This document shows positions 4,455 to 9,538 of a stretch of 16,269 nucleotides of DNA, piece after piece. The translations under genes were made by a program, and so were the position numbers. Source of the DNA: Acholeplasmataceae bacterium (GTDB lineage Bacteria; Bacillota_I; Bacilli_A; ML615J-28; CAG-698); the NCBI GenBank assembly GCA_012841765.1, contig DUUA01000068.1, positions 1 to 16,269 on the forward strand, written 5' to 3'. Position 1 is the first letter of the stretch; the number at the start of each line of letters is the position of its first letter. A model generated the notes under the pieces. It worked only from the letters and a program-made list of their open reading frames with translations. It was not told the origin of the DNA and did not search any database.

Positions 4455-4478
4455 TGGTAAAATTAAATAATTTTACCA
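4455..4478 (-). other. Perfect A/T-rich hairpin overlapping the dehydrogenase stop codon
   Basis: A 9-bp inverted repeat (4455-4463 and 4470-4478) with a 6-base loop spans the last codons and the stop of the lactate dehydrogenase gene. On the minus strand it is followed by CTAAATGTG and not by a T tract, so it is not a standard intrinsic terminator. It may stabilise the 3' end of the message or be a weak terminator. Confidence 0.35.
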
Positions 4479-5857
4479 GGATTTAAAACATTATTAGGAT
4501 CAAAAACATTTTTAATGCCCCTCATCAAAGCAACTTGCGTTTCTCCCAATATATCTTCTAGATATTTTTTCTTAGCAAAACCAATTCCATGTTCCCCAGA
4601 AACTAAGCCTTTCACTTCTTTGGCTTTTGCATATAAATCATCAAATACTTTTTCCAACTTTTCATCCCAATCTTCTTGTGATAAATCATCTTTACAAATG
4701 TATATATGAAGATTTCCGTCTCCAGCATGTCCAAAACTTGGAATGCGAATATTATATTTTTCTGATAACTCAAAAGTATATTTAATAAAGTTGCCTACCT
4801 CAGCTCTTGGAACAACAACATCACATTCATCCATTTCCGTTGTTGAAGATTTAATTGCCTCTAAAAAAGAACCTCTTGCTTTCCATACATCATCTTTTCT
4901 TTCGTCAGTATCAACAATTAAAACATCTTTAGCACCCAATTCATTTAAACATAAATCAGCTGCCTTTTTATATTTAGCATGCAATTCTTCATCATTAGCT
5001 CCATCAAAGGTAAGTAAAATATAAGCAGAATTTTCAGATTCAGGAAACCTTTTACCTAAAAAATCTTCAGAAAACTGAATAGTTTCTCTCGAAAAAAACT
5101 CAACAGCTGTTGGATCTGTATTAGATTGTAAAACTTTAGGAACTTGTTCTATTGCTTGTTCTAATGAATCAAACGGCACTAATAAGCTAATTACTTTATT
5201 TGGAAGAGAAACTAGTTTTAAAGTTGCCTTAGTAATAATTCCTAGAGTTCCTTCACTACCAATAATTAAGTTTTTAAGTGAGTAACCTGTAGTATCTTTA
5301 ACAACATTTCTTCCAAATTCAACAATATCACCGCTTGGAAGAACAACTTCTAAAGCTCTAACCCAATCTCTAGTAACGCCATATTTAACAGCTCTCATTC
5401 CACCAGCATTAGTAGCAATGTTTCCACCAATAGTAGCTGTTTTTTCACCTGGGTCTGGAGCATAAAAATATCCCATTGGCTCAATATATTCATAAATATC
5501 CATTAATAAAACACCAGGTTCAACTATCAGTGCTAAATTCTCTTCATCTAATTGAATAATTTTATTCATTAAAGTCATATCTAAAACTATTCCTTTATGA
5601 ATTGGTACACAAGCACCAACAAGCCCAGTTCCTGAACCTCTAACAGTTACAGGGATAAGATTTTCATTTGCATACTTCATAATACTAGCTACTTCTTCTG
5701 TATTAACTACTTTGATAATTAACTCTGGAGCTACAGCGACAGTGCCAAGTTCATCTTTAGAATATTCTTCAAATGTTTCATCATATTCAACTATTCTATC
5801 TTCAGCAATTAATTTCTTTAAGTTACTAATATCTTTATTACTTATTTTTTTATACAT
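4463..5857 (-). CDS. lctD: FAD-linked D-lactate dehydrogenase (GlcD/LctD family)
   Basis: This 464-residue protein has the VAO/PCMH-type FAD-binding fold followed by the FAD-oxidase C-terminal domain, normal length for the GlcD/D-lactate dehydrogenase family. Visible FAD-binding motifs are RGSGTGLVGACVP (73-85), DPGEKTATIGGNIATNAGG (135-153) and GSEGTLGIIT (200-209). The C-terminal half has GHAGDGNLH (376-384) and GEHGIG (421-426), which bind metal and the 2-hydroxyacid substrate in this family, and it ends in the usual PNNVLNPGKI. There is no membrane segment. A good binding site (AGAGGTGA) lies 7 bases before the ATG. The gene follows etfB and etfA in the same order as lctB-lctC-lctD of Acetobacterium woodii, whose product oxidises lactate with electron confurcation. 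D-lactate is the likely substrate because MurQ, in the same operon, releases it. Glycolate or another 2-hydroxyacid cannot be excluded by sequence alone. Confidence 0.9.
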   Translation of the reverse strand: MYKKISNKDISNLKKLIAEDRIVEYDETFEEYSKDELGTVAVAPELIIKVVNTEEVASIMKYANENLIPVTVRGSGTGLVGACVPIHKGIVLDMTLMNKIIQLDEENLALIVEPGVLLMDIYEYIEPMGYFYAPDPGEKTATIGGNIATNAGGMRAVKYGVTRDWVRALEVVLPSGDIVEFGRNVVKDTTGYSLKNLIIGSEGTLGIITKATLKLVSLPNKVISLLVPFDSLEQAIEQVPKVLQSNTDPTAVEFFSRETIQFSEDFLGKRFPESENSAYILLTFDGANDEELHAKYKKAADLCLNELGAKDVLIVDTDERKDDVWKARGSFLEAIKSSTTEMDECDVVVPRAEVGNFIKYTFELSEKYNIRIPSFGHAGDGNLHIYICKDDLSQEDWDEKLEKVFDDLYAKAKEVKGLVSGEHGIGFAKKKYLEDILGETQVALMRGIKNVFDPNNVLNPGKII

Positions 5858-5881
5858 TCAAATTCACCTCTTTAGTCAAAA

Positions 5882-7884: not shown

Positions 7885-7893
7885 CTTTCTTCC

Positions 7894-8634
7894 CTATCTT
7901 TCTTCTAAAAATTTTAGAGATTCCCTATAAAGAATATCTCTTTCTTGAATCTTATCATATCCATGACCGGCACAAGGTATCATAATATATTTAGAATTTT
8001 TAGTTAATTCATGAAATTTCTTTGAAACCTCAGGTTTCACAGCCAAATCTTTCTCACCTTGTATTATGAGTACATTACCTAAATATTCATCAAAACCATT
8101 ATATGTGTCATATTTACTAACACTTTCATACATTTCTTTTGATAATTCAAAAGAACTATTCATAATAATATTGCCATCCTCATTTTTTGGATAATCTTCA
8201 TAATATTTTTTTATGATATTTAAGATATTCCCAGCAGGACTCCACAAAATTATATTTTCAATTTCAGGATGTTTAACAGCCATCATGGCTGTAACAGCCC
8301 CACCCATCGAATAACCTAATAAAACTATGCTCTTATTACTAAAATTAGTTTTTGCATATTGTATTATTTGTTCACTATCATCAATTAAAGTATCAAATGT
8401 AAAATCTTTAAACTCACCATCTGATTCTCCATTACCGTAAAAATCAAAACGAATTGATGATATTTTATTTTTTAATAATACTCTTGAAAAATTTCTAAAA
8501 TGTCCAGCATGTTCAGTTTTATTGCCAGTAAAACCATGAAACATGATAACAATTAACTTGCTCTTTTCATGATCGGTTAGATATCCCCGAATAACTTCTC
8601 CGTTATTTCTTTTTAATTCAACATGTTTAATCAT
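7894..8634 (-). CDS. Alpha/beta hydrolase, serine esterase type, substrate unknown
   Basis: A 246-residue cytoplasmic alpha/beta hydrolase. The oxyanion region HGFTGN is at 33-38, and the nucleophile elbow GYSMGG places the serine at 109. Asp196 (in GEKD) and His224 (in GAGHGYD) complete the triad. A cap-like insertion lies at about 135-180. The overall pattern resembles the small carboxylesterases of the cinnamoyl/feruloyl esterase group, with no signal peptide. Its start overlaps the end of murQ by 8 bases, and etfB follows 9 bases later, so it is firmly inside the operon. Position between peptidoglycan-sugar and lactate genes suggests removal of an ester or similar group from muropeptide-derived molecules, such as an O-acetyl group, but the sequence does not show the substrate. 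Confidence 0.85.
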   Translation of the reverse strand: MIKHVELKRNNGEVIRGYLTDHEKSKLIVIMFHGFTGNKTEHAGHFRNFSRVLLKNKISSIRFDFYGNGESDGEFKDFTFDTLIDDSEQIIQYAKTNFSNKSIVLLGYSMGGAVTAMMAVKHPEIENIILWSPAGNILNIIKKYYEDYPKNEDGNIIMNSSFELSKEMYESVSKYDTYNGFDEYLGNVLIIQGEKDLAVKPEVSKKFHELTKNSKYIMIPCAGHGYDKIQERDILYRESLKFLEER

Positions 8635-9538
8635 TTTCCACCAACTCTAACGCTTTACGAATATTTCCTCCAGCTTTATTAAGATATTCATCAACTTTAT
8701 CAATATTATCTAAACCAGATAAATTAGAAAATATAGCCTTTTTAACAGTTTTAAATTTTTTTATTAAATATTTTGCTTCTTTTTCGCTAACTCCAGTAAT
8801 ATCGCAAATAATTGATTCTGCTCGCTTTACTAATTTCAAATTATTCATTTGCACATCAATCATTAAATTTTCATATACCTTACCAAGTTTAATCATTGAA
8901 ACTGTTGTAATCATATTACAAATAAGTTTTTGTGCAGTACCCGATTTCATTCTTGTTGAACCAGTTAATGGTTCAGCACCAGTAATAGCTTCTATTGGAT
9001 AATCAACAATACTAGCAATAATAGAATTAGGAGATGTTGTAATACATCCAGTAATTGCTCCAATGCTTCTAGCATATTTGACTCCGCCTATAACATATGG
9101 AGTTCTCCCGCTAGCAGCAATCCCAATCACTATATCTTTTGAACTTAAGTTTATTCTTTTAAGATCTTCAACAGATATAGTTAATGAATCCTCCACACCT
9201 TCTATCGCTTTAACAAATGCTTTTTCTCCTCCAGCCATAATACATTGAACCATTTCAGGAGAAACACCAAAAGTTGGTGGGCATTCTACCGAATCCAAAA
9301 CTCCGATTCTTCCACTTGTGCCGGCCCCAATATATATTAAGCGACCCCCAAGTTTAAACTTTTCTACCAAACAATCAATTAATGGAGCAATTTGAAAAAG
9401 TGTTTTTTCAACAACATGCGCAACCGTCTTATCTTCATCATTAATCATCTTTAAAGCTTCAACTGTGCTTACTTTATCAATATTTATTGTATTTAAATTT
9501 CTTGCTTCTGTGCCTATTTTCTTTAAATCAATATTCAT
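8627..9538 (-). CDS. murQ: N-acetylmuramic acid 6-phosphate etherase
   Basis: MurQ hydrolyses the lactyl ether of MurNAc-6-phosphate to GlcNAc-6-phosphate and D-lactate in the cytoplasm. The 303-residue length is normal. The N-terminal TEARN (10-14) is typical of the family. The SIS sugar-phosphate isomerase domain shows GAGTSGRIG (71-79), VECPPTFG (84-91), ASGRTPYV (140-148) and TGSTRMKSGTAQK (191-203). Glu85 and Glu116 sit where the catalytic acid/base residues of E. coli MurQ are reported. The C-terminal helical part ends in an AGGNIRKAL motif, also typical. The start lies 3 bases after the anmK stop and the end overlaps the hydrolase gene. Its products explain two neighbours: the amino-sugar kinases upstream supply MurNAc-6-P, and the lactate dehydrogenase downstream can use the lactate. 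Confidence 0.96.
   Translation of the reverse strand: MNIDLKKIGTEARNLNTINIDKVSTVEALKMINDEDKTVAHVVEKTLFQIAPLIDCLVEKFKLGGRLIYIGAGTSGRIGVLDSVECPPTFGVSPEMVQCIMAGGEKAFVKAIEGVEDSLTISVEDLKRINLSSKDIVIGIAASGRTPYVIGGVKYARSIGAITGCITTSPNSIIASIVDYPIEAITGAEPLTGSTRMKSGTAQKLICNMITTVSMIKLGKVYENLMIDVQMNNLKLVKRAESIICDITGVSEKEAKYLIKKFKTVKKAIFSNLSGLDNIDKVDEYLNKAGGNIRKALELVEND

What the first reader, a model, noticed from the sequence alone, without database searches (positions are those of the whole stretch)
4463..9538. MurNAc etherase operon ends in an electron-confurcating-type lactate dehydrogenase complex
MurQ releases one D-lactate per MurNAc-6-phosphate. The same operon carries etfB, an Fe-S extended etfA and a GlcD-family dehydrogenase in the order of Acetobacterium lctBCD. 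The simplest reading is that the lactate side chain of muramic acid is oxidised to pyruvate while NAD+ is reduced with help from ferredoxin, so the whole MurNAc molecule becomes a carbon and energy source. Known MurNAc operons (E. coli, Bacillus, Clostridium, Staphylococcus) as I know them do not include this module. This would be a distinct anaerobic muramate catabolic pathway.
Basis: partly seen in the sequence, partly recalled or inferred. Interest (0 to 1): 0.8.

Follow-up and report, generated by a model that had tools for sequence, protein, structure and literature searches.

The report
Cell-wall-sugar operon ending in lactate oxidase
A set of bacterial genes for digesting the cell-wall sugar muramic acid also carries an energy-coupled lactate-oxidising enzyme, so the sugar's lactate side chain can probably be used too, often in bacteria that seem to have no wall of their own.

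Summary
A tight minus-strand operon (16141-4463) encodes NamZ, a NagZ::MupG fusion, a BadF-type kinase, AnmK, MurQ, an esterase-like hydrolase, then EtfB, EtfA with an Fe-S motif, and LctD. The last three match Acetobacterium woodii LctBCD (7QH2) best by far; all ten published lactate-site residues, the bifurcating-FAD and NAD motifs and the four cysteines are kept.

The link is conserved. In three orders (293 genomes), MurQ occurs in 63 of 67 LctD-positive and 20 of 226 LctD-negative genomes. In 38 genomes both lie on one contig, always on the same strand: 2-5 kb apart in 20, 31-39 kb apart in 18. The seven of these 18 that I read are peptidoglycan-utilisation islands. The lactate permease family PF02652 is absent from 63 of 67. 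So the substrate is most likely the D-lactate that MurQ makes inside the cell.

Many carriers lack MurC (43 of 44 in two orders; 8 of 17 in the closest). For them this would be feeding on other bacteria's walls, not recycling; four of four islands checked encode a lipoprotein-type muramoyl-alanine amidase. Enzyme activity is inferred, not shown. Known parts, new combination.

The parts
16150..16178 (-). candidate operon promoter (TTGATA-17-TATAAT with TG)
   Evidence: consensus match only (89 such sites found against 91.1 expected in shuffles); ends 8 bp before the ATG at 16141, so translation may start at the later ATG 16117
15341..16141 (-). membrane protein of unknown family (266 aa); relatives lie before NamZ in many of the related loci
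   Evidence: no Pfam match; homologues before NamZ
14209..15348 (-). NamZ, exo-beta-N-acetylmuramidase
   Evidence: PF07075 and PF20732
11577..14198 (-). NagZ (GH3) fused to MupG (6-phospho-N-acetylmuramidase), 873 aa
   Evidence: PF00933 residues 8-330, PF19200 and PF05913 within residues 531-867; PDB relatives
10660..11577 (-). BadF-type sugar kinase, probably MurNAc/GlcNAc kinase (MurK-like)
   Evidence: PF01869; PDB relatives a hexokinase (106.6 bits) and MurNAc/GlcNAc kinase 8zo3 (55.6 bits); exact substrate inferred
9542..10663 (-). AnmK, 1,6-anhydroMurNAc kinase
   Evidence: PF03702, 332 bits; NF007148 over its cut-off
8627..9538 (-). MurQ, MurNAc-6-phosphate etherase (releases D-lactate)
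   Evidence: TIGR00274 366.8 bits, cut-off 302
7894..8634 (-). alpha/beta hydrolase related to feruloyl/cinnamoyl esterases; role unknown
   Evidence: PF12146; PDB relatives 7q4h, 7z2u; lies between MurQ and EtfB in 18 of the 19 loci (of L001-L100) with both on one strand
7093..7884 (-). EtfB/LctB, bifurcating-type electron transfer flavoprotein beta subunit
   Evidence: 7qh2_B 319.9 bits; DGDTAQVGP, RKFGG and SPT motifs
5882..7084 (-). EtfA/LctC with N-terminal four-cysteine Fe-S segment
   Evidence: 7qh2_A 455.1 bits; cysteines and the Arg equivalent to R205
4463..5857 (-). LctD, FAD-dependent lactate dehydrogenase subunit
   Evidence: 7qh2_C 628.9 bits; all ten lactate-site residues identical

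Best explanation
The operon takes sugars of peptidoglycan to central metabolism inside the cell. NamZ, NagZ and MupG cut the links between MurNAc and GlcNAc. The BadF-type kinase and AnmK make MurNAc-6-phosphate. [quoted passage not shown] The LctBCD complex (EtfB-EtfA-LctD) then oxidises this D-lactate to pyruvate: the FAD of LctD takes the hydride, and EtfAB passes the electrons to NAD+ with help from reduced ferredoxin, which pyruvate:ferredoxin oxidoreductase regenerates. Net: the lactyl carbon of muramic acid enters as acetyl-CoA plus CO2, with NADH. In carriers without wall synthesis this is feeding on other bacteria's walls, not recycling. Shown by sequence and comparison: gene families, motifs, operon structure, conserved linkage, co-occurrence, rarity of the PF02652 permease, lack of MurC in many hosts. 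Inferred: enzyme activities, D-specificity, direction, ferredoxin coupling and the external origin of the peptidoglycan.
For: Gene families; LctBCD best hits and motifs; at least 14 of the 80 closest LctD loci carry murQ, all 14 on the LctD strand; hydrolase-EtfB gaps of -8 to +16 bp in 14 of 18 linked loci. MurQ in 22 of 23, 9 of 12 and 32 of 32 LctD-positive genomes against 11 of 20, 2 of 78 and 7 of 128 LctD-negative ones. 38 of 38 same-contig pairs on one strand (strands). Islands with LctD at one end and MurQ at the other, holding RpiR-type regulator, AnmK, GH4, GHL10, Amidase_2 lipoprotein, beta-lactamase-family protein, ABC permeases, NamZ, NagZ and kinase. No GntR/LctP/LarA neighbours: 0 of 14 against 32, 24 and 21 of 66. 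PF02652 in 4 of 67. PFOR in 23 of 23 LctD-positive genomes of the closest order. No MurC match at E 1e-25 in 43 of 44; 8 of 17 linked genomes of the closest order have no MurC match better than 6.9e-8.
Against: No enzyme has been assayed. The lactate-site residues are invariant in all 88 LctDs compared, so they cannot tell D- from L-lactate or a linked from an unlinked role. LctBCD is not obligatory: 20 MurQ genomes of the three orders have no LctD match (some are contig cuts, e.g. G041, which keeps EtfB-EtfA after the hydrolase). G033 and G029 have the operon ending at the hydrolase (L098, L099). In G011, G027 and G028 LctBCD lies elsewhere. Four LctD-positive genomes (G048, G021, G078, G108) have no MurQ match. 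In G140 LctD stands in the island without EtfB-EtfA beside it. In L007, L008 and L085 the hydrolase-EtfB gap is 68-108 bp, room for a promoter. 9 of 17 linked genomes of the closest order have a strong MurC match, so recycling is possible there. No transporter gene lies in the window. Genomes are mostly drafts and related, so the Fisher values are not independent-sample probabilities.
Confidence: 0.78

Rival explanations
1. LctBCD serves lactate taken up from the surroundings, and sits in the MurNAc operon only by shared ancestry.
For: In Acetobacterium and a number of Clostridia the same genes lie with a lactate permease, lactate racemase and GntR regulator (families confirmed for L046). G011, G027 and G028 carry LctBCD away from murQ. 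G108 has LctD and the permease but no MurQ match.
Against: 0 of 14 murQ-linked loci have these neighbours (only 6 of the 14 have full flanks). PF02652 permease in 4 of 67 LctD-positive genomes. MurQ accompanies LctD in 63 of 67 genomes over three orders and in several arrangements, which ancestry alone explains poorly. Other lactate transporter families were not searched.
Confidence: 0.12
2. The complex runs in reverse: a bifurcating pyruvate reductase that makes D-lactate and reduced ferredoxin from NADH, as a fermentation outlet.
For: A. woodii Ldh-EtfAB has measurable reverse activity (PMC9232219, passages). The closest order has PFOR in 42 of 43 genomes.
Against: That paper reports the confurcating direction about 10 times faster. 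The MurQ encoded beside it already makes D-lactate.
Confidence: 0.06
3. The LctD subunit oxidises another 2-hydroxy acid (e.g. glycolate) released with cell-wall sugars.
For: The family includes glycolate and 2-hydroxyglutarate dehydrogenases that align with the query.
Against: LctD of A. woodii scores 629 bits, the next (a glycolate oxidase) 233. The only 2-hydroxy acid made in this pathway by known enzymology (recalled) is D-lactate.
Confidence: 0.04

Closest known systems
Acetobacterium woodii LctBCD (Ldh-EtfAB, PDB 7QH2)
   Same: Gene order, three subunits, bifurcating-FAD and NAD motifs, Fe-S segment, all ten lactate-site residues.
   Different: In Acetobacterium it lies with GntR regulator, lactate permease and LarA racemase; here it ends a MurNAc operon without them.
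Bacillus subtilis murQ-murR-murP-amiE-nagZ-namZ operon (recalled, from no call)
   Same: NamZ, NagZ and MurQ; the island version in relatives also holds an RpiR-type regulator and a beta-lactamase-family protein, like MurR and AmiE (likeness recalled).
   Different: No PTS domain in the window's operon; a BadF-type kinase, AnmK and a NagZ::MupG fusion are present and the operon ends in LctBCD. ABC permease genes lie beside the operon or in the islands of relatives.
Staphylococcus aureus MurP-MupG-MurQ pathway (PMC6262408, search listing and abstract start only)
   Same: MupG and MurQ chemistry.
   Different: Here MupG is fused to NagZ, and a lactate oxidation module is encoded with it.
Mycobacterial use of the lactyl group of MurNAc (PMC6572805, passages)
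   Same: Lactate of MurNAc, rather than only the sugar, feeds the cell.
   Different: There growth on MurNAc is oxygen-dependent and the etherase unidentified (also PMC13041923, passages); here the module is of a ferredoxin-coupled type and genetically linked to MurQ.
Engineered Corynebacterium glutamicum with MurQ (PMC6165865, passages)
   Same: MurQ-derived lactate contributes to growth.
   Different: There lactate accumulates transiently and the D-lactate dehydrogenase Dld is quinone-dependent.

Membership tests
LctBCD electron-confurcating lactate dehydrogenase | etfB-etfA-ldh gene order with best match to A. woodii LctB/C/D | tested here: met
LctBCD electron-confurcating lactate dehydrogenase | b-FAD motif DGDTAQVGP, NAD motif RXFXG and SPT in EtfB | tested here: met
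   motifs named in PMC9232219, found in the alignment
LctBCD electron-confurcating lactate dehydrogenase | EtfA arginine R205 and N-terminal four-cysteine Fe-S segment | tested here: met
LctBCD electron-confurcating lactate dehydrogenase | ten lactate-site residues of LctD (L80, R328, L332, E344, D346, H377, H384, Y386, E422, H423) | tested here: met
   listed, checked
LctBCD electron-confurcating lactate dehydrogenase | lactate oxidation with NAD+ driven by reduced ferredoxin | not testable with these tools
   needs a purified complex
MurNAc-6-phosphate etherase MurQ | TIGR00274 equivalog cut-off | tested here: met
   366.8 against 302 bits
E. coli/B. subtilis-type MurNAc operon | MurP PTS transporter in the operon (feature recalled) | tested here: not met
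   no PTS domain among the ten operon proteins; kinases instead; the rest of the window's genome is not held
Peptidoglycan scavenging by wall-less bacteria | no peptidoglycan synthesis genes in the carrier | tested here: inconclusive
   the window's genome is not held; its closest relative G001 has no MurC match and only a 3.0e-5 MurA-like one; 43 of 44 LctD-positive genomes of two further orders lack MurC, but 9 of 17 linked genomes of the closest order have it

The most novel reading that the evidence does not exclude
Apparently wall-less anaerobes of the Acholeplasma/Anaeroplasma and Izemoplasma lines and a third order carry a dedicated, conserved peptidoglycan-feeding system that burns the entire MurNAc molecule, lactyl group included, through an electron-confurcating D-lactate dehydrogenase. 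They live in part on the kind of wall they themselves have lost.
Probability: 0.65. Interest if true: 0.75.

Novelty: new variant of a known kind. Interest (0 to 1): 0.64.

Why it matters
MurNAc is abundant in dead bacterial biomass, and I found no held paper on the fate of its lactyl group under anoxic conditions. This predicts a complete anaerobic route whose energy cost and yield can be measured. It gives a metabolic reason why Acholeplasma took up carbon from dead E. coli in (aerated) slurry (PMC4628116, abstract). It may also bear on the bacteria-lysing habit of the rumen species Anaeroplasma bactoclasticum (recalled; no held paper has both that name and 'bacteriolytic'). Muramic acid is also used as a necromass marker (recalled), so its biological turnover matters there.

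Tried and rejected
Considered and set aside: a separate lct transcription unit (no terminator-like site between murQ and etfB, gap about 10 bp; an internal promoter is not excluded), and chance neighbourhood. Lactate-site residues as a test of D- against L-specificity led nowhere, being invariant in all 88 sequences. The LctD tree is the quick tree; the careful search did not finish. In it all 19 murQ-linked rows fall in one 26-row part with 7 unlinked rows, on a weakly supported split (72). Paper searches for the combination listed nothing on it; I did not read every listed paper, and the library lacks most subscription journals. The role of the alpha/beta hydrolase was not resolved: relatives are feruloyl/cinnamoyl esterases; removal of O-acetyl groups from MurNAc is a guess. 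Outside the three orders murQ was looked for only within the fetched flanks, at most 10 kb from LctD, so a distant island in Clostridia is not excluded; several of the 66 loci counted as without murQ are cut short by contig ends (upstream lengths). LctD thresholds differed between orders (1e-80 in two, 1e-120 in the third), as did MurQ thresholds (1e-30 and 1e-50). MurC was judged by E-value, since no genome of the closest order reached the family's curated cut-off (0 of 43). The names of the orders are not told by the tool; they are guessed from deposited titles of loci.
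Full report
What is there. The window's minus strand carries one compact operon: a membrane protein (16141-15341), NamZ, a NagZ::MupG fusion, a BadF-type kinase, AnmK, MurQ, an alpha/beta hydrolase, EtfB, EtfA and LctD (ending at 4463). Domains are from Pfam and NCBIfam. Neighbours overlap or lie within 24 bp of one another. A consensus promoter precedes the first gene, and no terminator-like site lies between murQ and etfB. 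Promoter-like matches are no more frequent than in shuffles (89 against 91.1), and a few lie inside the hydrolase gene, so an internal promoter is neither shown nor excluded. A 127-bp gap follows LctD before a large separate lipoprotein gene (136-4335).

Is the last module really LctBCD? The three proteins find A. woodii LctB, LctC and LctD as best solved relatives by a wide margin. The structure paper (PMC9232219; passages, section 7) names the b-FAD motif DGDTAQVGP, the NAD motif RXFXG, SPT, EtfA R205 and ten lactate-site residues. All are present, as are four N-terminal cysteines in EtfA. The ten residues are invariant in all 88 LctDs aligned, linked or not, so they support the chemistry of the family but do not prove D-specificity. 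D-lactate as the substrate is inferred from MurQ chemistry (D-lactate as product: PMC6165865, passages).

Conservation of the link. A scan of species genomes for LctD gave 407 relatives, of which the best 80 were kept. At least 14 of 80 have murQ in the same cluster, from MAGs deposited as Acholeplasmataceae, Anaeroplasma, Tenericutes, Bacillales, Bacilli and one Erysipelotrichales. None of these 14 has the GntR, LctP or LarA genes that accompany Acetobacterium lct (families confirmed), against 32, 24 and 21 of the 66 other loci. Only 6 of 14 and 42 of 66 have full flanks; there the counts are 0 of 6 against 28, 20 and 16 of 42. In the order of G010 (genome of L010, deposited as Anaeroplasma bactoclasticum; G001, the window's closest relative, is in it) 23 of 43 genomes have LctD, 33 have MurQ and 22 have both; 17 have them on one contig, 2.7-2.8 kb apart. 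An 18th, G041, shows MurQ-hydrolase-EtfB-EtfA before its contig ends. Against this, G011, G027 and G028 keep LctBCD elsewhere, G033 and G029 have the operon without it, G013 and G044 are undecided at contig ends, and G048 has a partial LctD and no MurQ match.

Two more orders. In the order of G019 (90 genomes; it includes loci deposited as Izemoplasma) LctD is in 12 and MurQ in 11, both in 9. In the order of G018 (160 genomes; genome of L024) LctD is in 32 and MurQ in 39, both in 32. Together with the first order, MurQ is in 63 of 67 LctD-positive and 20 of 226 LctD-negative genomes. The genomes are related, so the Fisher values printed there are descriptive only. Same-contig pairs in these two orders: 4 and 17. 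Three of the 21 are 2-4.3 kb apart and 18 are 31-39 kb apart. All 21 are on one strand, as are the 17 of the first order (strands).

The island. I read seven of the 18 wide pairs: G019 and G285, G099, G158, G060, G157 and G140. They share LctD, an RpiR-type regulator, AnmK, GH4, large envelope proteins, up to two pairs of ABC permeases, a DUF5696 protein, NamZ, NagZ, kinase and MurQ; EtfB-EtfA stand before LctD except in G140, a second BadF kinase is seen in three of the six, and NagB lies near in most. Domains were checked on G099 (GHL10 in two proteins, solute-binding protein, DUF5696, PIG-L deacetylase). A beta-lactamase-family protein and an Amidase_2 (N-acetylmuramoyl-L-alanine amidase) protein with Ig-like domains were found in four of four islands checked, G099, G285, G158 and G060. 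The four amidase proteins begin with a hydrophobic stretch ending in a cysteine, like lipoproteins (by eye), so they probably work outside the cell. G212 and G115 are short variants. The window's operon is a compact version. In relatives of its own order a second GH3, NagB, lipoproteins and, in G007, ABC permeases lie just upstream.

Whose walls? G001 (LctD 88% identical to the window's) has no MurC match and only a weak MurA-like one (3.0e-5). Of the 17 linked genomes of its order, 8 have no MurC match better than 6.9e-8 and no MurA-like match above 60.1 bits (cut-off 392.7), and 9 have MurC matches of 5.5e-56 or better. Of the 44 LctD-positive genomes of the other two orders, 43 have no MurC match at 1e-25, while 10 of 14 control genomes ring, all ten bacteria. 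Draft gaps can hide a gene, but hardly in 43 of 44. PMC10868615 (passages) independently describes repeated wall loss in these lines and notes peptidoglycan genes in 40-60% of Anaeroplasmataceae genomes, which fits the split found here. So in many carriers the pathway cannot be recycling of an own wall, if the gene absence is real. PMC4628116 (abstract) reports Acholeplasma as the predominant assimilator of 13C from dead E. coli in aerated slurry. Peloplasma aerotolerans, another Acholeplasmataceae member, did not grow on lactate (PMC11122141, passages); it was not checked for the operon, so this says little either way.

Where the lactate comes from and where electrons go. PF02652 lactate permease is found in 4 of 67 LctD-positive genomes (G006 weakly, G019, G051, G108), with E. 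coli and B. subtilis among the 4 of 14 controls that ring. Other transporter families were not searched. PFOR is in 42 of 43 genomes of the closest order and in all 23 with LctD, so reduced ferredoxin for confurcation can be made. PFOR in the other two orders and the reoxidation of NADH were not examined.

Novelty. No paper in the library holds both murQ and 'electron bifurcat', and the listings show none on an Etf-linked lactate dehydrogenase in MurNAc catabolism (titles and abstract starts seen; not all read). Use of the lactyl group is known in mycobacteria (oxygen-dependent, PMC6572805, passages) and in engineered C. glutamicum (PMC6165865, passages). The parts are known families; the combination, its conservation and its concentration in apparently wall-less bacteria appear new.

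Noticed in passing
11577-14198: NagZ (GH3) and MupG are fused into one 873-aa protein; the same fusion is found in 10 further genomes (11 loci, two of them from one genome), while the Anaeroplasma-type loci L010, L012, L014 and L015 have MupG alone.
   Followed up: partly
7894-8634: A feruloyl/cinnamoyl-esterase-like hydrolase sits between MurQ and EtfB in 18 of 19 loci of L001-L100 with both on one strand; its substrate is unknown.
   Followed up: partly
136-4335: Large lipoprotein-like protein with Ig-like and Listeria-Bacteroides repeat domains follows the operon; relatives follow it in several related loci.
   Followed up: partly
16205-16229: Perfect 11-bp inverted repeat (ACTGTACCCAC...GTGGGTACAGT) with a T-rich tail just upstream of the operon, perhaps the terminator of the preceding gene.
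   Followed up: no
L104:688-19442: The island of relatives holds two GHL10 proteins, a PIG-L-type deacetylase and a lipoprotein-like Amidase_2 protein beside LctBCD, candidates for wall degradation by bacteria without MurC.
   Followed up: partly
L016:785-5876: LctBCD without murQ nearby follows a GH20-type hexosaminidase gene and precedes what looks like a sugar ABC transporter (by eye) in a horse-gut MAG.
   Followed up: partly
L005:7930-8790: EtfB of this linked locus appears split into two reading frames (best tblastn piece 194 bits, 302-bp gap to EtfA), a sequencing error or a broken gene.
   Followed up: no
G108 and G019:C1:247581-249137: The few LctD genomes with a PF02652 lactate permease are mostly Izemoplasma-type; G108 has LctD and permease but no MurQ match, as the external-lactate role would predict.
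   Followed up: no
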